Source: Bacteroidota bacterium (GTDB lineage: Bacteria > Bacteroidota > Bacteroidia > Chitinophagales > Chitinophagaceae). Taken from it: a stretch of DNA of 59,980 nt. Numbering within the stretch: the stretch's first letter is position 1; each line of letters begins with the position of its first letter. This document shows positions 6,251-52,845 of the stretch, piece by piece. The stretch covers positions 1 through 59,980 of the forward strand of contig JABDBX010000002.1 in NCBI GenBank assembly GCA_013288445.1. Reading direction: 5' to 3'. The notes under the pieces were generated by a model. That model had not been told where the DNA came from. It ran no database searches and was given only the letters and a program-made list of their open reading frames with translations. The position numbers and the translations under genes are program-made.

Positions 6251-6323
6251 AGGCAATGTCATTAACTCAAGGAAGTCTGTAGGACTTCAATTTGAATAGC
6301 CGCCGGTGAAACCGGCGGAAATG
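6251..6323. repeat. GCCGCCGGTGAAACCGGCGG repeat, short copy
   Basis: It begins AGGCAATGTCATTAA, then carries the GGAAGTC...GGACTTC hairpin, TTTGAATAGCC, and the palindrome CCGCCGGTGAAACCGGCGG. It is a truncated relative of the longer copies at 15968-16100 and 20922-21062. Confidence 0.65.
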
Positions 6324-11050: not shown

Positions 11051-11289
11051 CAGGGCAAACGCATTAAAATTGATAAACCCGAAGGGTTGATATTATTATA
11101 GCAAATGGACAAAAAAACGCCGATAAACCCCGAAGGGGGTGATATTATTTGCTAATGCATGACGAAATAATATCACCCCTTCGGGGTTTTGCACAGGTTA
11201 GAAATATTATCCTATAATAATATCAACCCTTCGGGTTTACTGTAACAACTGAGTCAGTTGAATACCGGCATTTTAATGCGTTTGCCCTG
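11051..11289. mobile_element. Nested palindromic element E1 with 10-bp flanking direct repeat
   Basis: The ends CAGGGCAAACGC and GCGTTTGCCCTG are exact inverted copies. Within lie a 27-bp perfect inverted repeat (11075-11101 with 11212-11238, core CCCGAAGGG) and a nested 25-bp pair (11125-11150 with 11165-11189, core CCCCGAAGGGG). The sequence CACTGTACCC occurs directly before (11041-11050) and after (11290-11299) the element and looks like a target-site duplication. No ORF is inside. Confidence 0.7.
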
Positions 11290-11352
11290 CACTGTACCCA
11301 GTTTAATGGCTGCGTGTCAATAATTCTTTATAACTTCATTAAAATTACACTT

Positions 11353-13320
11353 ATGAAATCATTATTCGCTTTGATCTCCAAAAGAGTGGGCAATTTTTTA
11401 GTGTTTATTTTTTTATGCGCTTACCCACGCATAACACTTGCCCAGATCATTAACACTATTGCCGGCAGTGTTGCCGGTGTGCAAGGCTATTCGGGCGATG
11501 GCGGCCCGGCAACGGCAGCCCTGCTTTCGACAACTATCCAAATAGCGCTGGATGGGCATGGGAATATATTTTTTTCGGACAACTATAACGATATTATCCG
11601 TAAAATAGATGCATGTGGTATTATAACTACAGTAGCAGGCACACCCCTGGCGGGTGGGACTGGCGGCGATGGATCGGCGGCAACCGCTGCCTTGCTTGGC
11701 AGCCCCGGGGGTGTGGCCGTTGACGGTATCGGTAATATGTATATAAGTAACGATGCATACAGAATAAGAAAGGTAAGCGCCCTGGGCATTATTACCACGA
11801 TAGCTGGGAATGGTGTTGCGGGCTTTTCGGGCGATGGTGGCCCGGCAACTGCTGCCTTGGTGGGTAGGCTGGGATACATCACTGTTGACAGGATAGGGAA
11901 TGTCTATTTTTGTGACCAGGGTACTCCGCCAACTTTTAGTGGGCAGCGCATCCGAAAAATAGACACTGCAGGCATCATCACCACTTATGCGGGCACTGGA
12001 TCGCACGGGTTTGGCGGCGATGGGGGGCCTGCCACGGCTGCGATTTTAAATGATCCTACTGATATTTCTTTCGATGCATATGGCAATGGTTACATTACTG
12101 ATGGGTTAAATTACCGTATCAGGAAGGTGGATACGGCCGGTATTATTATTACAGTGGCGGGCACCGGAACCTCCGGTTTTTACGGCGATGGTATGGCGGC
12201 TACCGTTGCCCAGTTGCGGCCATCGGAAGCATCGGTGGATGATTCGGGAAATATTTTGATAAGCGATGCCGGGAACGGCAGGCTGCGCAGGGTAAATACA
12301 GCGGGCATCATCACCACTATTGCTGGCAATGGCACCTATGTATATAGTGGGGATGGCGGCCCGGCAACCGCAGCAGGTTTCACAGACCCAATAAGGGATG
12401 CCGTGACCGATAAATTTGGAAACATCTTCGTTTCGGATGAAACAGGCGGCAGGATACGGATGATCGGCGCCTTTCATGCCCCTCTTTTTGTGGGAGATAC
12501 TACCGGTGGACTCCACCTGAATGCGTGCGGTACCAATGTCATGGACATTAATGCACTGCTCGCAGTTATTGATTCAGACTACGGCCAAACCGAGACCTGG
12601 GGCATGCTTACCCCGCCTGCACATGGCGCCGTAACCGGCACCTATAGCGCCACCACGCTTGGTGTTTTATTAACGCCCACCGGGTTTTATTATACGGCCG
12701 CAGTGGGCTATACCGGAACAGATTCATTCCGTATGCAGGTAACAGATTGCCGGGGCCAGTCGGGTACTGCCACCATTTTTGTTACTGTAAATCCGTTGCC
12801 AAATGCCGGCAGTATTGCTGGTACCGACCACGTATGCCCCGGTAGTAGCGTAACGCTCACAGATACTACTGCAGGAGGTGCATGGAGCAGCAGTAATACC
12901 GCTATATCTACGGTAGGTACCGCTGGTGTCGCAATTGGTGGTGCATCGGGCCTGGATACTGTGCTATATACCGTTATCGCTGCAACCACAGGCTGTAGTG
13001 CCAGCGCGCTGTTCCCGCTTACGGTGCTGCCACACTCGGCGTGCAATGAAGGGACAGGCAATGTGGCAATGCGGCAATACGGCGATGTGACTGTGTGGCC
13101 TAACCCAAACGATGGTTCGTTTACGCTTTCTTTACCAGACATCGCTAATGAGGAAGCCCGAGTAACCATCATCAATGTAGCTGGAGAAAAAGTAATGGAG
13201 TTTACTGTACAAACCATCACGCTGACGCCTGTAAAAATGACATTGCCAATAGGGGTCTATACTATATATGCTATAGCTCCGGGCAAAACCTGGAAAAGTG
13301 AGGTAGTAGTAGATCATTAG
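11353..13320 (+). CDS. NHL-repeat secreted protein with Ig-like domains and T9SS type A sorting domain
   Basis: This 655-residue protein begins MKSLFALISKR with a signal peptide ending near ITLAQ. Residues about 30-380 hold NHL-type beta-propeller blades with the recurring phrases GYSGDGGPATAA and IITTIAGNG. A cadherin/Ig-like stretch follows (about 390-480, TDSFRMQVTD), then a second Ig-like module (about 485-570, VCPGSSVTLTD). It ends in a type A sorting domain (VWPNPNDGSFTLSLP ... PIGVYTIY). It should be exported by Sec and T9SS to the cell surface, for binding or adhesion. An in-frame ATG at 11314 is less likely. The gene sits between two palindromic elements in the DUF1015-serC interval. 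Confidence 0.88.
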   Translation: MKSLFALISKRVGNFLVFIFLCAYPRITLAQIINTIAGSVAGVQGYSGDGGPATAALLSTTIQIALDGHGNIFFSDNYNDIIRKIDACGIITTVAGTPLAGGTGGDGSAATAALLGSPGGVAVDGIGNMYISNDAYRIRKVSALGIITTIAGNGVAGFSGDGGPATAALVGRLGYITVDRIGNVYFCDQGTPPTFSGQRIRKIDTAGIITTYAGTGSHGFGGDGGPATAAILNDPTDISFDAYGNGYITDGLNYRIRKVDTAGIIITVAGTGTSGFYGDGMAATVAQLRPSEASVDDSGNILISDAGNGRLRRVNTAGIITTIAGNGTYVYSGDGGPATAAGFTDPIRDAVTDKFGNIFVSDETGGRIRMIGAFHAPLFVGDTTGGLHLNACGTNVMDINALLAVIDSDYGQTETWGMLTPPAHGAVTGTYSATTLGVLLTPTGFYYTAAVGYTGTDSFRMQVTDCRGQSGTATIFVTVNPLPNAGSIAGTDHVCPGSSVTLTDTTAGGAWSSSNTAISTVGTAGVAIGGASGLDTVLYTVIAATTGCSASALFPLTVLPHSACNEGTGNVAMRQYGDVTVWPNPNDGSFTLSLPDIANEEARVTIINVAGEKVMEFTVQTITLTPVKMTLPIGVYTIYAIAPGKTWKSEVVVDH

Positions 13321-13330
13321 GTGTTCCTCG

Positions 13331-13563
13331 GGGCAAACGCATTAAAATGCCAATATTCAATTGATTTAGTATCTATTGTAAACCCGAAGGGTTGGCATTA
13401 TTATAGAACAATATATCAAGTCACGAAAGAACCCTGAAAGGGTGGCATTATCCGCTCACGCATAGAAAAATAATGTCACCCTTTCAGGGTTTATCGGCGT
13501 TTTTAATTCGTCAGCTATAATAATATCACCCCTTCGGGTTTATCAATTTTAATTCGTTTGCCC
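13331..13563. repeat. Nested palindromic element E2
   Basis: The ends GGGCAAACGCATTAAAAT and ATTTTAATTCGTTTGCCC are inverted copies. Inside are paired CCCGAAGGG / CCCTTCGGG arms and an inner CCCTGAAAGGGTG / CACCCTTTCAGGG pair. It is the same family as E1 (11051-11289) and lies 10 nt after the stop codon of the NHL gene, so the gene is bracketed by the two. No clear target-site duplication is seen. Confidence 0.7.
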
Positions 13564-13599
13564 TATGGAGCTCCTGAACCCATTCGTTCTTTCCAAAAT

Positions 13600-15310: not shown

Positions 15311-15412
15311 GACCCAAAGGTACGAAAAACCTACTCATCACCCGACAAAATACGCTGTATATTTTAAATTTTTGCATTAAAATAAATATTATAAATACTT
15401 CATTCAAGATTA

Positions 15413-15569
15413 GTGACGTTGATGAAATAAATGCCCCTATATGGCGAAGTTATTTTTCCTTTTTTCGAGGCGTAAAATCTGCGAATAGTGGGCTATTTAA
15501 AGACTTTTACAACGAAGAAAAAATGGAAAAGAACAAGCCAGATGGTGGCATTTATTTTATCATCGTCAC
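15413..15569. mobile_element. Hairpin MITE family H, copy 1 (157 bp)
   Basis: The ends are GTGACG and CGTCAC, and TTA is duplicated on both sides (15410-15412 and 15570-15572). The whole element is an imperfect palindrome centred at 15491 (GCGAATAG-TGGG-CTATTT). It aligns with copies at 17802-17959, 39941-40097 and 52660-52816, the last two in inverse orientation. No coding capacity is seen. A 3-bp TWA target duplication fits IS5/IS1031-like or PIF-like transposition. Confidence 0.85.
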
Positions 15570-15611
15570 TTAATCATAAATGCCGGATCCTCGGGATAAT
15601 TGCACTCCGAG

Positions 15612-17688: not shown

Positions 17689-18488
17689 ATGCCGGAACTA
17701 TTCATTATTACGGGTTCAAATGGTGCGGGCAAATCTACTATTGGACCAAATTATCTTCCGCTCCATATCAAAAATAGCTGTTCGGTTTTTGACGGTGATA
17801 AGGAACGTTGACAAAATAAAGTACACCATATTGCGAAGTTATTTTTCTTTTTTACTAGGCGTAAAAATCTGCGAATAGTGAACTATTTAAAGACTTTTAC
17901 AACGAAGAAAAAATGGAAAAGAACAAGTAAGATGGTGTACTTTATTTTGTCATCGTTCCTAAGCTGTTTATTGAGAAAAGAAATGAGTTATGGCAAACTA
18001 TTCAAGCGCCAAAAGAAGTGAACAAATTAGCATTGGAATTTACTGTAAAAACTTTTGAAGAGCAGTTAGGCGATGCATTGGCCAAAAGAGCTAATTATGT
18101 TTACGAGGGACATTTTACAAATGATAGTACATGGGATACTCCTGTAAAGTTCAAAGCAAATGGATATGAAGTAACCCTGATTTTCTTTGGATTGGAAAGT
18201 CCTGATGCTTCCCAGGTAAGAGTTGTTGAACGTGCAAAAGAAGGGGGGCATTGGGTTGATCGTCGCACAATTGAAGATAACTTTTATGGTAATCTGCAGA
18301 AATTGGAGCAGCACCTGGATGCCGTAAATAATATACAAATAATTGATACAACAGGTGAGCACATTCTTTTAGCAAATTTTATCAATGGTAACGTGCGTTC
18401 AGCCGCTTCATCAAATAAACTACCGTCCTGGTTTATCACTTACTTGCCAACCTTAGTCAGAGCAATAGATAATTTTCACTTAAAATAA
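17689..18488 (+). pseudogene. Zeta-toxin/P-loop kinase gene interrupted by hairpin element H
   Basis: The reading frame starts MPELFIITGSNGAGKST (Walker A, residues 9-17) and reaches VFDGDK, where the element at 17802-17959 introduces a stop (GAA CGT TGA). After the element the frame resumes as KLFIEKRNELW and runs to 18488, including YVYEGHFTND (zeta-like catalytic region), EVTLIFFGLES and VVERAKEGGHWVDRRTIEDN. Removing the 158-bp element and one TAA copy leaves 639 nt, a 212-residue protein in frame, the normal size for zeta-like kinases. An internal GTG at 18018 could start a C-terminal fragment without the P-loop. The gene is inactive as it stands. Confidence 0.88.
17802..17959. mobile_element. 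Hairpin MITE family H, copy 2 (158 bp), inside the zeta-toxin gene
   Basis: The ends are GGAACG and CGTTCC, with TAA duplicated at 17799-17801 and 17960-17962. Its arms differ from copy 1 but still match each other (AAAGTACACCAT with ATGGTGTACTTT). Exact removal restores the host reading frame. Confidence 0.9.
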
Positions 18489-34942: not shown

Positions 34943-34997
34943 GGAACGATGACAAAATAAGTTTGGCAAGTTGCCGGAGTTATTTTGTCATCGTTCC
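34943..34997. mobile_element. Miniature hairpin element of family H (55 bp)
   Basis: GGAACGATGACAAAATAA and its perfect 18-bp inverse form the arms, and TTA is duplicated at 34940-34942 and 34998-35000. The inner GTTTGGCAA and TTGCCGGAG pair if two G-U pairs are allowed, so the whole element folds back on itself. The ends are those of copy 2 (17802-17959). Confidence 0.8.
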
Positions 34998-39940: not shown

Positions 39941-40097
39941 GTGACGATGAAAAAATAAATACCACCATCTGACTTGTTCTTTTCCATTTCTGCTTCATTG
40001 CAAAAGTCCTAAAATAGCTCACTATTCGCCGATTTTGCGCCTCGCATAAAAGAAAAATAACTTCGCCATATAGTGATATTTATTTTTTCAACGTCAC
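39941..40097. mobile_element. Hairpin MITE family H, copy 3 (157 bp), in the efflux locus
   Basis: Ends GTGACG/CGTCAC; flanks GAA on the left and TAA on the right, so the target duplication is imperfect. It is inverse to copies 1 and 2. It sits between the adaptor stop (39930) and the first pump start (40248), where its hairpin could reduce read-through. The rest of 39931-40247 has no gene. Confidence 0.82.
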
Positions 40098-40247: not shown

Positions 40248-43200
40248 GTGAATAAGCTCATAAAGCAAATAATATACTTCTCACTGCGTCATAGATACTT
40301 TGTATTTTTTATGACTGCCATTCTTGCCGTGATCGGTTTCGTAAGTTACCGCAATACGCCAATTGAAACATTCCCGGACGTAACGAATACCCAGATCATC
40401 ATTATCACCCAATGGGCAGGCCGGAGCGCCGAAGAAATAGAGAAACTCGTAACCATTCCTCTTGAAACAGAATTAAATTCGGTACAAAGCAAAACAAGCC
40501 TGCGTACTATTTCGTGCTTTGGGCTTTCTTACATCGTCATCATTTTCGATGATGGTATCACAGACGGATTCGGCAGGCAGCAGGTGCTGAGCCGGATACT
40601 GAATGTGGACCTGCCAGATGGTGTGAAACCGGAAATAGAGCCGCCATATGGCCCAACGGACGAGATATACCGATATACCTTAACCAGCCACACCAAATCG
40701 GTGCGTGAGCTCACTACCATACAGGATTGGTTCCTGGAACGGCAATTCAAATCAGTGCCAGGTGTGGCTGATGTGAATACATTTGGCGGTGAGGAAAAAA
40801 TATTTGAGATCAGCGTGAACCCGAACCTGCTGCTGAAGTATGGCCTGACCGCTCTCGACCTGTTCAACGCCGTGAATAAAAGCAACATCAATGTTGGCGG
40901 TGATGTTATAGAGCGTAACGGCCAGGCGTTTGTGGTGCGGGGCATCGGGTTGCTCAACGACATTGACGAGATCAATAACGTGATCATCACAAACATAAAT
41001 AACGTTCCTGTTCTTGTGAAGAACGTGGCTGATGTAAGAGAGAGCTTTGCGCCGAGGCTTGGCAAAGTGAGCAGAAATGACCAACCCGATGTTGTAGAAG
41101 GTATCATCGTACAGCGTAAAGGCGAAAACCCGCGCCAGGTATTAGATCTGCTGCACAAAAAAGTGGCAGAACTGAATAAAGTCCTTGCCCGGCAAGATGT
41201 GAAGATCAGCACTTTCTATGACCGTACCACATTAATGGATTTTTGTACGGAAACAGTGATACACAACCTTATTGAAGGTATATTGTTGGTTACGGTTGTT
41301 GTGTTCCTGTTTATGGCCGAATGGCGCACTACGCTAATTGTGGCGCTTATCATTCCGTTGGCGCTGTTGTTTGCGTTCACCTGTATGCGGCTGAAAGGCA
41401 TGACCGCCAATTTGCTATCTATGGGCGCTGTGGATTTTGGTATCATTATAGATGGCGCCGTGGTGATGGTGGAGGGCATATTCGTGGCAATGGACCACAT
41501 GGCCAGGGATGTGGGTATGGAGCGATACAATAGATTGATAAAGCTGGGCGCATTTAAAAATGTGGCTGTGGACAAAGCGAAGGCTATATTTTTCTCAAAG
41601 CTGATCATCATTACCTGCTTGTTGCCCATATTCGCTTTTACTAAAGTGGAAGGAAAAATGTTCTCTCCGCTGGCCTATACACTTGGATTTGCATTGCTCG
41701 GGGCTTTGATCTACACGCTCACATTAGTTCCCGCTCTTGCCAGTATCCTCCTAAAAAAGAATGTTAGGGAAAAACACAACCCTATGGTTATAGGGTTGGA
41801 GAAATTGGTGGACAGGTCGGCAAGGTACATTTCCAGGTTCCCTAAGACAAGCGTTATCACCGCTTTCTCCATCATGCTGCTTACGTTTGCGTCCACGCAC
41901 TTCCTGGGTACCGAATTTCTGCCCAAGCTCAATGAGGGTGCGTTATGGATAACCGCGCAAATGCCCATCAGCTCTTCTCTCGGGGAGTCTTACGATGTTT
42001 CGCAGAAGATATACAGCGTGCTGAAGCAGTACCCTGAAGTGAAGGAGGTGTTGATACAGGTGGGCCGCACAAATGATGGAACCGACCCCAAAGGGTTTGC
42101 CAACGTGCAGTTTGCCGTATCCATGTACCCCAAGGGCGAATGGAAGCGCAAGATGACCATGGATGAGGTTGTGGACGACATGAACAAGAAACTGGCTGCT
42201 TTCCCCGGAGTGATCTTCAACTTTGCACAGCCCATCAGCGATAATGTAGCGGAGGCGATAGCGGGTGTTCCGGCAGAAAATGCGTTAAAAATATTTGGCC
42301 CGAACTTAGATACGCTTGAACGAAAGTCAGCGGAGGCCCGGAATATCCTTAAAGGCATAAAAGGGGTTACCGACCTTGGAGAGTTTAAAGTGGTGGGGCA
42401 ACCGGAATACCGGATAGAGCTGAACCAGCAAAAAATGGCTTTGTATGGCGTGAACGTCGCCGATGCAAATTCGATAATAGAGATGGCGCTGGGAGGAAAA
42501 GCCGCAACCATATTATATGACAATGACAGGCGCTTCGACATCCGGATTCGTTATGATAAAGATTTCAGAGACGATGACGAGAAGATAAACAATCTTATTG
42601 TGCCCTGCGGCAACGGTAACGTGGTGCCGTTGAAAAACATAGCCGATATAAAGATCATTACCGGCCCTGCCTTTGTATATAGGGATAAAAACACCCGCTA
42701 CATAGGTGTGAAGTTTAGTGTTCGCGACCGCGACCTGGGCGGAACAATTCAGGAGGCACAGAAAACCATAGAGAAAAAACTACAACTCTCTGACGATTAC
42801 TCTGTGGCATGGAATGGCGAGTTTGAAAACCAGGAACGGGCTCAGAATACATTGGCAACAGTGGTGCCAATCTGCCTGCTGATGATTTTTATTTTGCTTT
42901 TCGTAGCATTCGGAAATGTAAAAGATGCGCTTATTGTGTTGATCGATGTGCCTTTTGCATTGATAGGCGGCATTCTTGCGCTGCACATCAGGGGCATGAA
43001 TTTTAGTATTTCTGCGGGTATAGGGTTTATAGCATTGGCAGGCATTTGTGTACAGGATGGCGTCATACTTATTTCGCAGTTCAAGCATAACCTGGACATT
43101 ATGAAAATGCCCTTGAAGAAAGCTATCCATGAGGGTGTGGTATCAAGGGTGCGCCCTGTGGTGATGACGGCCATGATGGCCGCTATCGGATTATCGCCTG

Positions 43201-43385
43201 CGGCCTTTAGCACGGGTATAGGGTCGGAGTCCCAGAAACCGCTTGCGACAGTAGTTATAGGAGGGCTTATCACATCAACAATTCTTACACTGCTTATCCT
43301 GCCGGTTATCTATACAATGGTGCATAACCTTATCCATAAGCGGGAGAACAGGAAGTTGCTGAAACGTATAGGCGCTGTAAACTGA
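40248..43385 (+). CDS. Heavy-metal RND pump CzcA/CusA family, first copy
   Basis: The 1045-residue protein has the HME-RND layout: TM1 (residues 12-31), two large periplasmic loops, and twelve membrane segments. TM4 holds DFGIIIDGAVVMVE with Asp396, Asp402 and Glu409, the proton-relay pattern of CzcA-type divalent cation pumps; CusA-type copper/silver pumps lack this arrangement. It exports metal ions from periplasm or cytoplasm through the adaptor and duct encoded upstream. The start is GTG. A hairpin element lies between it and the adaptor gene, and a terminator follows its stop. It is a close paralogue of the next gene. Confidence 0.93.
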   Translation: MNKLIKQIIYFSLRHRYFVFFMTAILAVIGFVSYRNTPIETFPDVTNTQIIIITQWAGRSAEEIEKLVTIPLETELNSVQSKTSLRTISCFGLSYIVIIFDDGITDGFGRQQVLSRILNVDLPDGVKPEIEPPYGPTDEIYRYTLTSHTKSVRELTTIQDWFLERQFKSVPGVADVNTFGGEEKIFEISVNPNLLLKYGLTALDLFNAVNKSNINVGGDVIERNGQAFVVRGIGLLNDIDEINNVIITNINNVPVLVKNVADVRESFAPRLGKVSRNDQPDVVEGIIVQRKGENPRQVLDLLHKKVAELNKVLARQDVKISTFYDRTTLMDFCTETVIHNLIEGILLVTVVVFLFMAEWRTTLIVALIIPLALLFAFTCMRLKGMTANLLSMGAVDFGIIIDGAVVMVEGIFVAMDHMARDVGMERYNRLIKLGAFKNVAVDKAKAIFFSKLIIITCLLPIFAFTKVEGKMFSPLAYTLGFALLGALIYTLTLVPALASILLKKNVREKHNPMVIGLEKLVDRSARYISRFPKTSVITAFSIMLLTFASTHFLGTEFLPKLNEGALWITAQMPISSSLGESYDVSQKIYSVLKQYPEVKEVLIQVGRTNDGTDPKGFANVQFAVSMYPKGEWKRKMTMDEVVDDMNKKLAAFPGVIFNFAQPISDNVAEAIAGVPAENALKIFGPNLDTLERKSAEARNILKGIKGVTDLGEFKVVGQPEYRIELNQQKMALYGVNVADANSIIEMALGGKAATILYDNDRRFDIRIRYDKDFRDDDEKINNLIVPCGNGNVVPLKNIADIKIITGPAFVYRDKNTRYIGVKFSVRDRDLGGTIQEAQKTIEKKLQLSDDYSVAWNGEFENQERAQNTLATVVPICLLMIFILLFVAFGNVKDALIVLIDVPFALIGGILALHIRGMNFSISAGIGFIALAGICVQDGVILISQFKHNLDIMKMPLKKAIHEGVVSRVRPVVMTAMMAAIGLSPAAFSTGIGSESQKPLATVVIGGLITSTILTLLILPVIYTMVHNLIHKRENRKLLKRIGAVN

Positions 43386-43570: not shown

Positions 43571-46500
43571 ATGAATAAATTCATTAAGCAAATAATATAC
43601 TTTTCGCTCCGGCACAGATATTTTGTGTTTTTTATGACGGCAATACTTGCAGTCATCGGGTATATCTGCTACCGGGACACACCGATTGAAACCTTCCCGG
43701 ACGTAACCAATACGCAGATCATTATCATTACCCAGTGGCAGGGCCGCAGTGCAGAGGAAGTGGAAAAATTCGTAACCATTCCCCTTGAAACTGCGCTGAA
43801 TTCGGTGCAAGGCAAGATAAATCTCAGGTCCACATCGTGCTTCGGCCTCTCGTATATCCGGCTGATATTTGACGACAATATTGATGATGCCTTTGCGCGC
43901 CAACAAGTGTTCACAAGAATAGGTAATGCCGACCTGCCGGATGGCATATCGCCGGAAATAGAGCCTCCATACGGGCCTACCGGGGAAATATACCGATATA
44001 CATTAGAGAGCAAGACAAAAAACATACGCGACCTGAATACGATACAGGAGTGGGTACTGGACCGGCAGTTTAAATCGGTACCCGGCGTTGCGGACGTAAA
44101 CACTTTCAGCGGCGGCGAAAAGATATACGAGATACGCGTGAACCCGAATGAGATAATGAACTACGGGCTTACGCCACTTGACGTTTATAATGCTGTATCT
44201 AAAAGCAACATAAATGTGGGTGGGGACGTGCTGGAGCAGAACGGACAGGCATTTATTATCAGGGGCATAGGACTGCTTAATGATATAAACGAGATAAAGA
44301 ACGTTATCGTGACCAAAATAAACGGCGTGCCTATTCTCGTAAAGAACATAGCAGAAGTGGCCGAAACTGAAAAGCCGCGCCTGGGCGATGTGAAGCACGA
44401 TAAGGATGAAGACGTGGTGGAAGGCATCATTGTGATGCGCAAAGGGGAGAATGCTGCGCAGGTGCTTGCAGGCATCCACGAAAAGGTGAAAGAGCTTAAT
44501 GAGAATGTGCTGCCGAAAGACGTGAAAATAGTACCCTTTTATGACCGGAGTACCCTCATGGAGTTTGCTACCCATACGGTATTGCACAACCTTTTTGAAG
44601 GTATTGTACTCGTTACGCTCATCGTCCTCATCTTTATGGCCGATTGGCGTACCACGCTTATTGTGGGCATCATTGTGCCGCTGGCGCTGCTTTTCGCGTT
44701 CATGCTCATGCGCCTCAAAGGCATGACCGCCAACTTGCTATCGATGGGGGCGGTGGACTTCGGTATCATCATAGATGGCGCCGTGGTGATGGTTGAGGGG
44801 CTTTTCGTGGCCCTCGATCATCGGGCTAAAGAGGTGGGCATGGAGCGGTTTAATAAGCTGGCAAAACTGGGGTTATTTAAAAACGTAGGCACGGAGATGG
44901 GCAAGGCGATCTTCTTCTCAAAGATCATTATTCTTACCTGCCTGATCCCCATATTTGCGTTTCAGAAAGTGGAAGGTAAAATGTTTTCGCCGCTTGCTTA
45001 TACACTCGGCTTCGCATTACTTGGCGCCCTTATCTATACCCTCACGCTCGTGCCGGCGTTATCAAGCATATTGTTGCGCAAAAACGTACGTGAAAAACAC
45101 AACCCCGTTGTTGGTTTTTTTGAGAAGTATGTGATGCAGGGGTTCCGTTGGGTTTACAAGCGGCAGCGCACCAGCCTCATAATAGCTATATCTGTGATGG
45201 CTGTTACATTCTTCTCTGCAAGGTTCTTAGGTTCGGAGTTCCTGCCTGAACTGGACGAGGGCGCTTTGTGGGTAAAAGGGCAGTTACCAATGAGCGCATC
45301 GCTGGATGAATCTAACCAGATTGCCCGGAAGATGATGACGATATTGGAACAGTTCCCCGAAGTGCAGCATACGCTGGCCCAGGTGGGGCGTACAGTTGAT
45401 GGCACCGACCCTAAAGGTTTTTTCAATATAGAAATAGCCGTGGACCTGAAGCAGAAAGACCAGTGGCCTAAGGGCGTGACCACAGAAAGCCTTATCGATG
45501 ATATGGATAAGCAGTTGAGTAAGATACCCGGTATCCTGTACAACTATTCGCAACCGATAAGGGACAATGTGGAAGAGGCAGTTGCGGGGGTTCCGGCGTC
45601 GCTGGCAGTAAAGATCTCGGGGAAAGACTTCGGTACACTGGATACCTTGGCAGATGAGGTTATGGGGCAGCTAAAAACCGTGCAGGGCGTAGAAGACCTG
45701 GGAGTGCTCAGGAACCTGGGCCAGCCGGAATTCAGGATAGAACTGGACCAGCAGAAGATGGCGCTCTATGGCGTGAGTATAGCCGATGCCAACGCAGTAA
45801 TAGAAATGGCCATTGGCGGCAAGGCAGCTACGCAGCTTTATGAGGGGGAGCGCAAATTTGATATCAGGGTGCGATACGATAAGGAATTCAGGAATACACA
45901 GGAAAAAATAGAAAACCTGATGGTGCCTACGCAAGACAATACCCGCATCCCGATAAAGGAAATTTCTGATATAAAAGTGCTTACCGGTCCGTCGTTTGTG
46001 TACCGCGACAATAATGCCCGGTATATACCGGTTAAATTCTCCATCCGTGGCCGCGACCTGGGCAGCACCATAGCCGAGGCGCAAAAAAAGGTGCAGGCAA
46101 ACGTAAAGATACCGCACGGCTATAGCATGACATGGAACGGCGAGTTTGAGAATGCGCAGCGTGCCTCAAAAACGTTATCGCAGGTGGTGCCACTATGCCT
46201 TATCGCCATTTTCCTCTTATTGTTCATTACCTACGGCAACGTCAAAGACGCGTTGCTCACCATACTGAACGTACCATTTGCATTGATAGGCGGCATACTT
46301 GCCCTGCATATTACCCGTATGAATTTCAGCATCAGTGCGGGCATTGGCTTTATAGCCTTGTTCGGGGTCTGTATCCAGAACGGGGTGATACTCATAAGTG
46401 TGTTCCGAAAAAACTTAGATGAAAAAATGACCCTGCACAAGGCTATAGAACATGGGGTGCATTCGCGTATAAGGCCGGTAGTTATGACTGCTCTTATGGC

Positions 46501-46741
46501 AGCAATAGGGCTGTTGCCTGCGGCAATAAGCACTGGCATAGGCTCTGAAACGCAAAAGCCGCTGGCAATTGTGGTGATAGGTGGACTGATAACCTCTACG
46601 ATATTGACGCTGCTCATATTGCCGGTAATCTATGCTATTGCCTATAACCTGATACATAAACGCGAAAACCGGAGGCTACTGCGGAAAATGGGCGTGATAA
46701 GCCAAAATTCTGCGGATGACCGGAATATAAGTGGAAAATAG
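43571..46741 (+). CDS. Heavy-metal RND pump CzcA/CusA family, second copy
   Basis: The 1056-residue protein is co-linear with the preceding pump, near identical at the N-terminus (KQIIYFSLRHRYFVFFMTAI in both), and carries the same Asp396-Asp402-Glu409 relay in TM4. The two diverge more in the periplasmic loops (for example EQNGQAFIIRG versus ERNGQAFVVRG), and this copy has an 11-residue longer C-terminus. Its role is cation export with the shared adaptor and duct; a shifted metal preference is possible but not shown. It has no adaptor or duct of its own nearby. A tandem gene duplication followed by divergence best explains the pair. Confidence 0.93.
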   Translation: MNKFIKQIIYFSLRHRYFVFFMTAILAVIGYICYRDTPIETFPDVTNTQIIIITQWQGRSAEEVEKFVTIPLETALNSVQGKINLRSTSCFGLSYIRLIFDDNIDDAFARQQVFTRIGNADLPDGISPEIEPPYGPTGEIYRYTLESKTKNIRDLNTIQEWVLDRQFKSVPGVADVNTFSGGEKIYEIRVNPNEIMNYGLTPLDVYNAVSKSNINVGGDVLEQNGQAFIIRGIGLLNDINEIKNVIVTKINGVPILVKNIAEVAETEKPRLGDVKHDKDEDVVEGIIVMRKGENAAQVLAGIHEKVKELNENVLPKDVKIVPFYDRSTLMEFATHTVLHNLFEGIVLVTLIVLIFMADWRTTLIVGIIVPLALLFAFMLMRLKGMTANLLSMGAVDFGIIIDGAVVMVEGLFVALDHRAKEVGMERFNKLAKLGLFKNVGTEMGKAIFFSKIIILTCLIPIFAFQKVEGKMFSPLAYTLGFALLGALIYTLTLVPALSSILLRKNVREKHNPVVGFFEKYVMQGFRWVYKRQRTSLIIAISVMAVTFFSARFLGSEFLPELDEGALWVKGQLPMSASLDESNQIARKMMTILEQFPEVQHTLAQVGRTVDGTDPKGFFNIEIAVDLKQKDQWPKGVTTESLIDDMDKQLSKIPGILYNYSQPIRDNVEEAVAGVPASLAVKISGKDFGTLDTLADEVMGQLKTVQGVEDLGVLRNLGQPEFRIELDQQKMALYGVSIADANAVIEMAIGGKAATQLYEGERKFDIRVRYDKEFRNTQEKIENLMVPTQDNTRIPIKEISDIKVLTGPSFVYRDNNARYIPVKFSIRGRDLGSTIAEAQKKVQANVKIPHGYSMTWNGEFENAQRASKTLSQVVPLCLIAIFLLLFITYGNVKDALLTILNVPFALIGGILALHITRMNFSISAGIGFIALFGVCIQNGVILISVFRKNLDEKMTLHKAIEHGVHSRIRPVVMTALMAAIGLLPAAISTGIGSETQKPLAIVVIGGLITSTILTLLILPVIYAIAYNLIHKRENRRLLRKMGVISQNSADDRNISGK

Positions 46742-52631: not shown

Positions 52632-52659
52632 CAACCTTATGTTCTTTACTTTAAGCTAA

Positions 52660-52816
52660 GTGACGATGAAAAAATAAATACCACCATCTGACTCGTTCTT
52701 TTCCATTTCTGCTTCGTTGCAAAAGTCCTAAAATAGCTCACTATTCGCGGATTTTGCGCCTTGCATAAACGAAAAATAACTTCGCCATATAGTGGTATTT
52801 ATTTTTTCAACGTCAC
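52660..52816. mobile_element. Hairpin MITE family H, copy 4 (157 bp)
   Basis: Ends GTGACG/CGTCAC with TAA at 52657-52659 and 52817-52819. It is nearly identical to copy 3 (39941-40097), in the same orientation. It follows the truncated HEPN-like frame and precedes the acyltransferase promoter. Confidence 0.88.
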
Positions 52817-52845
52817 TAACGAACCGGTTGCCTGTTTTTCAACAA

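What the first reader, a model, noticed from the sequence alone, without database searches (positions are those of the whole stretch)
15413..15569. Full-length hairpin MITE family (H) with TWA target duplication and covarying arms
Four copies of 157-158 bp (15413-15569, 17802-17959, 39941-40097, 52660-52816) share a core. Each is an imperfect palindrome over its whole length, and most are flanked by a 3-bp TTA or TAA duplication. The arms vary between copies but stay matched within each one: GTGACG/CGTCAC versus GGAACG/CGTTCC at the ends, and AAATGCC/GGCATTT versus AAAGTACACC/GGTGTACTTT inside. Such compensatory change suggests selection on the folded form, as RNA or cruciform, or that the transposase reads a hairpin. 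No transposase with matching ends is in the window.
Basis: partly seen in the sequence, partly recalled or inferred. Interest (0 to 1): 0.72.

Follow-up and report, generated by a model that had tools for sequence, protein, structure and literature searches.

The report
Hairpin mobile repeat with covarying arms
A short mobile DNA hairpin is scattered about a hundred times through this bacterium's genome and occurs across its genus; its two arms change letters together in the lineages that spread but decay freely once a copy has settled, which suggests that folding matters to how it spreads.

Summary
The four copies are real and at the stated places. A fifth, 55-bp version lies at 34943-34997. 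The window's draft genome (3.05 Mb, 65% complete) has 207 end matches against 2 for a control pattern. The element matches in 28 of 35 genomes of the genus and 12 of 195 sampled from the family.

It makes 3-bp TTA/TAA duplications: 82 of 121 candidates against 0-3 at shifted offsets, the target rule of IS1031/IS5-type transposases. No transposase with its ends was found in 48 loci scanned.

Covariation is strong in tips, mid-arm and inner core. On a tree of 173 copies, internal branches carry 61 compensatory double changes against 80 pair-breaking ones; the 96 shortest terminal branches carry 1 against 45. The contrast survives matching by number of changes. So pairing is kept in lineages that multiply and lost in settled copies. 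One strand folds better in 84 of 84 related copies; the G.U-over-A.C test is only suggestive.

Best reading: a new MITE family whose spread depends on a folded single strand. REPINs are the nearest precedent. Fold-dependence is inferred, not shown.

The parts
15413..15569 (+). copy 1, 157 bp, tips GTGACG/CGTCAC
15410..15412 (.). TTA duplication, left of copy 1
15570..15572 (.). TTA duplication, right of copy 1
17802..17959 (+). copy 2, 158 bp (one extra base in the core), tips GGAACG/CGTTCC
17799..17801 (.). TAA duplication, left of copy 2
17960..17962 (.). TAA duplication, right of copy 2
39941..40097 (-). copy 3, between the HlyD-type and AcrB-type genes of an efflux operon; flanks GAA/TAA (duplication imperfect)
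   Evidence: no copy in the matching operon stretch of six other genomes of the genus
52660..52816 (-). copy 4, 157 bp, tips GTGACG/CGTCAC
52657..52659 (.). TAA duplication, left of copy 4
52817..52819 (.). TAA duplication, right of copy 4
34943..34997 (.). 55-bp mini version: the two ends and a short spacer, flanked TTA/TTA

Best explanation
This is a non-autonomous mobile element (MITE) of about 157 bp that inserts at CTWAG with a 3-bp TWA duplication (shown by flank statistics). Its spread depends on the element folding, over its whole length, as one strand of RNA or single-stranded DNA (inferred). Lineages that keep multiplying therefore change both arms together, even near the outermost tips, while the core sequence stays more constant. 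Once inserted, a copy is no longer under that constraint and decays without compensation (supported by the tree). The enzyme is inferred from the target rule to be an IS5/IS1031-type DDE transposase acting in trans, now lost or not sampled. Whether the fold is read by that enzyme, is an intermediate of the move, or protects the element while it moves is not known.
For: Duplication: 82 of 121 element candidates, ends chosen without using the flanks; offsets 1-7 give 0-3; the base before is C in 47/121 and the base after is G in 47/121. Covariation in 79 aligned copies: cells with both sides changed are 120 in the tips (slid by 1-3: 2-10), 165 in the mid-arm (slid 23-51), 100 in the inner core (slid 2-20), with 0 of 500 shuffles reaching each of these counts (these shuffles do not keep relatedness, the slides do). 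30 of 46 pairs predicted by RNAalifold have double changes. Tree of 173 distinct copies: internal branches 61 doubles and 80 breaks, 96 terminal branches under 0.04 carry 1 and 45, Fisher 1.5e-8. Matched by number of events (a double counted once), branches of 6 or fewer: internal 41:32, terminal 16:72, p 6e-7 (IQ-TREE); 33:34 and 12:76, p 2e-6 (FastTree). The core (+) strand folds better than its complement in 84 of 84 copies, mean -61.1 against -45.2 kcal/mol. Three copies with tips GGGCTTGTAAGG, 7 of 12 positions unlike GGAACGTTGACG, keep core, near-complete pairing and TTA/TAA duplications.
Against: On branches with 7 or more events internal and terminal do not differ (p 0.64 and 0.12), and terminal branches of 0.04 or more carry 65 doubles against 167 breaks; I read these as changes made before insertion in unsampled lineages, which is not shown. 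G.U over A.C also exceeds 1 with partners slid out of register (pooled 1.35-1.89; single slides 0.6 to 6, two of twelve above the in-register 3.4), so the single-strand argument is weak by that test; it vanishes if only pairs with 85% or more Watson-Crick cells are used (14:10). All copies are related, so 84 of 84 is not 84 independent results. The tips could covary simply because one enzyme must bind both; position 8 in the tips never varies in A1. Hybrid copies with unlike tips exist (L391). No transcript data and no transposase.
Confidence: 0.5

Rival explanations
1. Transposase binding alone: both ends must carry the site of the same enzyme, so when the enzyme's specificity shifts both ends change. 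The hairpin is a by-product of inverted repeats.
For: TWA target rule of IS1031/IS5-type enzymes; tips fall into discrete types; the 55-bp version and 44-bp versions show that about 18-21 bp per end can be enough; position 8 in the tips never varies in A1.
Against: Covariation continues at positions 19-33 and in the inner core 42-66, far beyond an 18-bp end. Positions 19-28 vary most of all zones while staying paired. Copies with different tips live side by side in one genome.
Confidence: 0.22
2. Arm-to-arm correction: template switching or hairpin-directed repair, perhaps during transposition itself, copies one arm onto the other, so matching is mutational and not selected.
For: Template switching is proposed to create and maintain hairpins by linked changes (PMC8794818, abstract and opening read). 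Most edges with a double carry only one (56 of 74, one resolution, mirror pairs), as single-mismatch correction would give.
Against: 22 of 78 mirror positions stay mismatched in over 80% of copies, although a few of these (46, 52, 53) pair one column off in the predicted fold. On terminal branches of 3 or fewer events there is 1 double against 29 breaks, internal 25 against 20 (IQ-TREE), so correction outside transposition is rare; correction during transposition is not excluded. G.U pairs persist.
Confidence: 0.2
3. Host-level RNA function of settled copies (terminator, mRNA stabiliser, RNase III site, as for ERIC/NEMIS).
For: Copies lie mostly in intergenic gaps (6 of 76 overlap an ORF), sometimes inside operons (copy 3); strong fold; RNA roles are described for such repeats (PMC2229807, part 1 of 3 read).
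Against: Changes on short terminal branches look unconstrained: G.U:A.C 41:26 equals the slid ratio (1.58 against 1.54), and 1 double. No clear orientation preference to neighbouring genes in 71 copies: 15 ++, 25 --, 17 -+, 14 +-. No Rfam family in the window; weak matches of copy 2 are mainly miRNA hairpin models below their gathering scores.
Confidence: 0.06

Closest known systems
REPINs (PMC3116915; passages read)
   Same: Palindromic, multi-copy, extragenic; predicted ssDNA/mRNA hairpin; compensatory changes on both sides of the hairpin called common; selection argued at the level of the element.
   Different: In REPINs the outer REP ends are conserved and the spacer varies, and RAYT tyrosine transposases are linked; absence of a target duplication there is recalled. 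Here the tips and mid-arm vary more than the core, and a 3-bp TWA duplication is made.
CGTC- and GTAG-tagged REPs (PMC3733652; passages read)
   Same: Palindromic repeats, CGTC type also reported from Bacteroidetes and without a dedicated transposase; GTGACG-type tips here contain CGTC in the complement.
   Different: Those are 20-40 bp with an unpaired tag; here the tip is paired and the commonest tip (GGAACG) has no CGTC.
MITEs mobilised by IS1031/IS5-type transposases (3-bp TNA rule, PMC12016507, passage read)
   Same: TNA-type 3-bp duplication, inverted repeats, small size, no gene.
   Different: No IS with matching ends found among the loci read; tips are not one conserved sequence; covariation reaches the core.
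Tourist-like / PIF-Harbinger MITEs of eukaryotes (mPing, PMC4561436, passages read)
   Same: Insertion at TTA/TAA with 3-bp duplication.
   Different: Bacterial host; DDE_Tnp_4 matches in only 5 of 35 genomes of the genus, 1 over its cut-off; no homology shown.
ERIC/IRU, Correia/NEMIS, QMITE1 (PMC2229807, part 1 of 3 read; PMC5896051, passages)
   Same: Small palindromic repeats whose transcripts fold as long stem-loops.
   Different: Mostly 5'-TA-3' termini in the table read; other hosts; the words compensat- and covari- do not occur in the main text of PMC5896051.

Membership tests
MITE | short, multi-copy, no coding gene, terminal inverted repeats | tested here: met
MITE | target-site duplication | tested here: met
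   82 of 121 exact 3 bp, other offsets 0-3
MITE | presence/absence at orthologous sites | tested here: inconclusive
   The operon stretch of copy 3 lacks the element in G212, G216, G205, G218, G219 and G225, but the gap also differs by other sequence, so no base-exact empty site.
IS5/IS1031-mobilised element | 3-bp TNA duplication | tested here: met
IS5/IS1031-mobilised element | full-length IS with the same ends in the genome or genus | tested here: inconclusive
   None of 48 transposase loci has matching ends on both sides. In the genus 33 of 46 PF01609 places were read; genomes are drafts.
REPIN / tagged REP | conserved GTAG or CGTC tag, unpaired, at the outer end | tested here: not met
   tips GGAACG, GTGACG, GTGATG, GGGCTT, all paired
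REPIN | RAYT (Y1) transposase in the genome | not tested
REPIN | compensatory changes in the hairpin | tested here: met
Known Rfam RNA family | match at gathering score | tested here: not met
   0 in the window
ERIC | 127-bp consensus | not tested
   size differs (127-bp RU-1 seen in an abstract); the ERIC sequence was not compared

The most novel reading that the evidence does not exclude
A duplication-making (DDE-like) element whose ends are recognised largely by their pairing and not by their sequence: it moves as, or through, a folded single strand of fixed polarity, so its tips can be rewritten at many positions (GGAACGTTGACG to GTGATGTTGATT to GGGCTTGTAAGG) as long as they stay complementary.
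Probability: 0.17. Interest if true: 0.85.

Novelty: new variant of a known kind. Interest (0 to 1): 0.58.

Why it matters
Hairpin repeats are common in bacteria, and whether their fold matters to the element, to the host or to nobody is usually left open. Here nearly 200 copies of one family let the question be split by branch: compensation appears in multiplying lineages and is nearly absent on the shortest terminal branches, which points to the element's own spread. It also poses a concrete question: how an element with an IS5-like target rule tolerates so much change at its tips.

Tried and rejected
Autonomous partner: DDE_Tnp_1 in the own genome (3 places) and in the genus (46 places; 31 held as loci, 2 more read through), DDE_Tnp_1_2 (3), DDE_Tnp_4 (5) and DDE_Tnp_1 in eight genomes outside the genus (9). 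A uniform scan of these 48 loci with six end types and up to 3 mismatches found no locus with both ends; L062, L210 and L211 have one (earlier scans). L210's end belongs to a rearranged repeat copy beside a DDE_Tnp_1 gene. Four long 'end pairs' (L087, L101, L131, L172) are a full copy plus a second end-like sequence; the ORFs of L101 and L131 between them do not look like transposases by eye, and no family search was run on them.

Solo ends (TWA + 18 bp without partner) were followed into 20 longer stretches: no partner that would close a coding-size element was recognised; the ORFs there were not searched.

Strand-specific fold from G.U over A.C: at first it looked decisive (26:2 on internal branches of 84 copies). 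Slid-partner controls showed a background excess, so it was downgraded to suggestive.

Register: paired mirror positions, which is one column off for 41-54; searches use the RNAalifold register. The 0.04 branch cut was set before counting and not varied; one search shows that the next bin (0.04-0.08) already has 21 doubles against 58 breaks.

Plasmid and phage collections: no match to the element. The 28 viral-contig hits of the bare end pattern were not followed, except that an end scan over all held loci included them; about that many are expected by chance (my estimate).

Copies not used: one search took the 84 copies and added others from the 199 (length 145-185, score over 90), dropping many-gap and duplicate rows, to 173. 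Alignment A1 holds 77 of the 84 copies plus window copies 2 and 3; I left out seven (L159, L179, L157, L167, L176, L064, L027) without a test. In one search the ends were refined partly with the flanks, so its duplication count (126 of 199) is biased and not used. Some of the 121 candidates are alternative end pairings of one element. An earlier count said the GGGCTT tips differ at 12 of 12 positions; that was wrong, it is 7 of 12.

Full report
What is there. The four copies are present as described. They are 157, 158, 157 and 157 bp, two in each orientation of an asymmetric core. Copies 1, 2 and 4 have exact TTA or TAA duplications; copy 3 has GAA/TAA. A 55-bp version with the same ends and TTA/TTA lies at 34943-34997. 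Copies 1 and 2 fold with z near -10.

Where it lives. The window is one contig of a 3.05-Mb draft genome, 65% complete. In the own genome the end pattern (up to 1 mismatch) has 207 hits, the reversed control 2. The element matches in 28 of 35 genomes of the genus at E up to 0.01 and in 12 of 195 sampled genomes of the family, in 7 of 101 genera, at E up to 1e-4; the weakest of these are short partial matches. Plasmid and phage collections gave nothing.

Mobility. With ends chosen by pattern only, 82 of 121 element candidates carry an exact 3-bp direct duplication (46 TTA, 30 TAA); offsets 1-7 give 0-3. C precedes and G follows more often than other bases (47 of 121 each). PMC12016507 (passage read) states that IS1031-group elements prefer TNA and make 3-bp repeats. 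PMC4561436 (passages read) gives the TTA/TAA rule for the eukaryotic mPing. The efflux operon that holds copy 3 has no copy in the matching stretch of six other genomes of the genus; in G212, G216 and G205 only 42, 41 and 21 bases separate the two matched parts. This shows absence between species, but not a base-exact empty site. Two insertions are shared by two genomes of another genus (L423/L428, L426/L427, judged by flanks); L427 has a decayed right tip facing an intact left tip.

Covariation. On 79 copies (77 of 84 selected ones plus window copies 2 and 3), RNAalifold predicts 46 pairs, 30 of them with double changes. Cells with both sides changed, in register against partners slid by 1-3: tips 120 against 2-10, mid-arm 165 against 23-51, inner core 100 against 2-20, with 0 of 500 shuffles reaching each observed count. 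The inner core lies beyond any 18-bp terminal repeat. At the same time 22 of 78 mirror positions are mismatched in over 80% of copies; a few of these (46, 52, 53) pair one column off in the predicted fold. The arms are therefore not just copies of each other. The most variable zone is 19-28 and its partner 130-139 (entropy 1.14 and 0.91 bits, against 0.45-0.66 elsewhere).

When the pairing is kept. On an IQ-TREE tree of 173 distinct copies with parsimony states, 171 internal branches carry 61 double Watson-Crick changes and 80 pair-breaking single changes. The 96 terminal branches shorter than 0.04 carry 1 and 45 (Fisher 1.5e-8); the 77 longer terminal branches carry 65 and 167. Because a double lengthens its branch, I also matched branches by number of events, counting a double once. 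With 6 or fewer events: internal 41:32, terminal 16:72, p 6e-7; on a FastTree tree 33:34 and 12:76, p 2e-6. With 3 or fewer: internal 25:20, terminal 1:29 (IQ-TREE). With 7 or more events there is no difference (p 0.64 and 0.12). On mirror pairs the two trees gave 49 and 50 internal doubles, slid partners 0-3. The reading is that paired arms are a property of lineages that multiply, that settled copies drift, and that long terminal branches mix both histories; this last step is inferred.

Which strand. The core (+) strand folds better than its complement in 84 of 84 copies (mean -61.1 against -45.2 kcal/mol with RNA parameters; 83 of 84 with DNA parameters). On internal branches Watson-Crick pairs change to G.U 51 times and to A.C 15 times, while slid partners give 1.59:1 pooled (Fisher 0.014), with single slides from 0.6 to 6 and two of twelve above the in-register 3.4. 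On short terminal branches the ratio is 1.58, equal to the slid 1.54. On mirror pairs with FastTree the internal excess is weaker (p 0.04 against pooled slides, 0.17 against the mean slide), and it disappears when only pairs of at least 85% Watson-Crick cells are used. I treat it as suggestive of a single strand of fixed polarity. In unpaired columns, changes that would make G.U are not commoner per site than those that would make A.C, so a simple strand-biased mutation pressure is not supported.

Tips. End pairs include GGAACG (97 of 199), GTGACG (21), GTGATG (6), GCAACG (1) and ATGACG (1), with GTGAAG also seen, and three copies of one genome with GGGCTTGTAAGG, which differ from GGAACGTTGACG at 7 of 12 positions. 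These three keep the core and TTA, TTA and TAA duplications; in two of them the right tip reads GGGCATG, one mismatch to the left. Hybrids with unlike tips exist (L391).

Partner enzyme. DDE_Tnp_1, DDE_Tnp_1_2 and DDE_Tnp_4 hits in the genus, and DDE_Tnp_1 hits in eight genomes outside it, gave 48 loci, none with the ends on both sides; 13 of 46 DDE_Tnp_1 places in the genus were not read. G209, 99% complete with 33 matches to the element, has no hit to any of the three families. The enzyme may be lost, unsampled or of another family.

Context. Of 76 copies with enough flank, 6 overlap an ORF. In 71 with a neighbour on each side, gene orientations relative to the core show no clear preference (15 ++, 25 --, 17 -+, 14 +-). 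Genes were simple ORFs of at least 100 aa. This argues against a host function that needs one RNA strand.

Literature seen. PMC3116915 (passages): REPINs, compensatory changes common, hairpin in ssDNA or mRNA, putative transposition intermediate. PMC3733652 (passages): GTAG- and CGTC-tagged REPs. PMC8794818 (abstract and opening): template switching as a mutational source of compensation. PMC2229807 (part 1 of 3). PMC5896051, PMC10969869, PMC4561436 and PMC12016507 (passages found by word). A search for Chitinophagaceae with miniature inverted-repeat found 0 papers; the other searches listed no title describing this family. Subscription journals are mostly not held.

Verdict. A new MITE family of known general kind, with clear evidence that arm pairing is conserved in spreading lineages and lost in settled ones. 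The mechanism (fold of one strand needed for spread) is inferred at about even odds.

Noticed in passing
window 34943-34997: 55-bp mini version made of the two ends with a short spacer, TTA/TTA; two 44-bp versions occur in G218 (L392).
   Followed up: partly
L237, L262, L236, L240, L242, L248, L250, L252, L257, L375, L376: Solo ends: TWA plus the 18-bp end (0-1 mismatch) with no partner recognised within about 1.5-5 kb; some sit next to terminator-like hairpins by eye (L383, L393).
   Followed up: partly
L057:1501-1917; L093, L106, L114, L135, L210, L389: Copies whose core holds other repeats (ACCGGTGAAACCGGT REP-like blocks, and a CATAGCTTTAGCGAAGGCATG repeat). The window itself has a similar REP-like family at 6252, 15955 and 20918.
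   Followed up: no
window 11052-11287 and 13331-13564: Pair of long inverted repeats flanking one large ORF (11314-13320), with an AAACCCCGAAGGGG palindrome at 11125-11190.
   Followed up: no
window 40248-43385 and 43571-46741: Two tandem large ORFs with about 75% DNA identity in the stretches listed; the first is an AcrB-type transporter by Pfam.
   Followed up: no
window 18018-18488: ORF with a weak zeta-toxin-like Pfam match (27 bits, cut-off 22) just right of copy 2.
   Followed up: no
L086: A copy on a contig binned as Gammaproteobacteria (CANCGR010000543.1, 3.7 kb), perhaps a mis-binned contig.
   Followed up: no
L218, L230: Two IS-like loci with ACCCAAATTTTGCAT-type ends about 1.4 kb apart and TTA on both sides; ends unlike this family's.
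   Followed up: no
L080, L091, L103, L119, L120 (bin-5616): Copies whose core lies 41-79 bases from a locus end that appears to be the contig end, so the repeat seems to break short-read assemblies.
   Followed up: no
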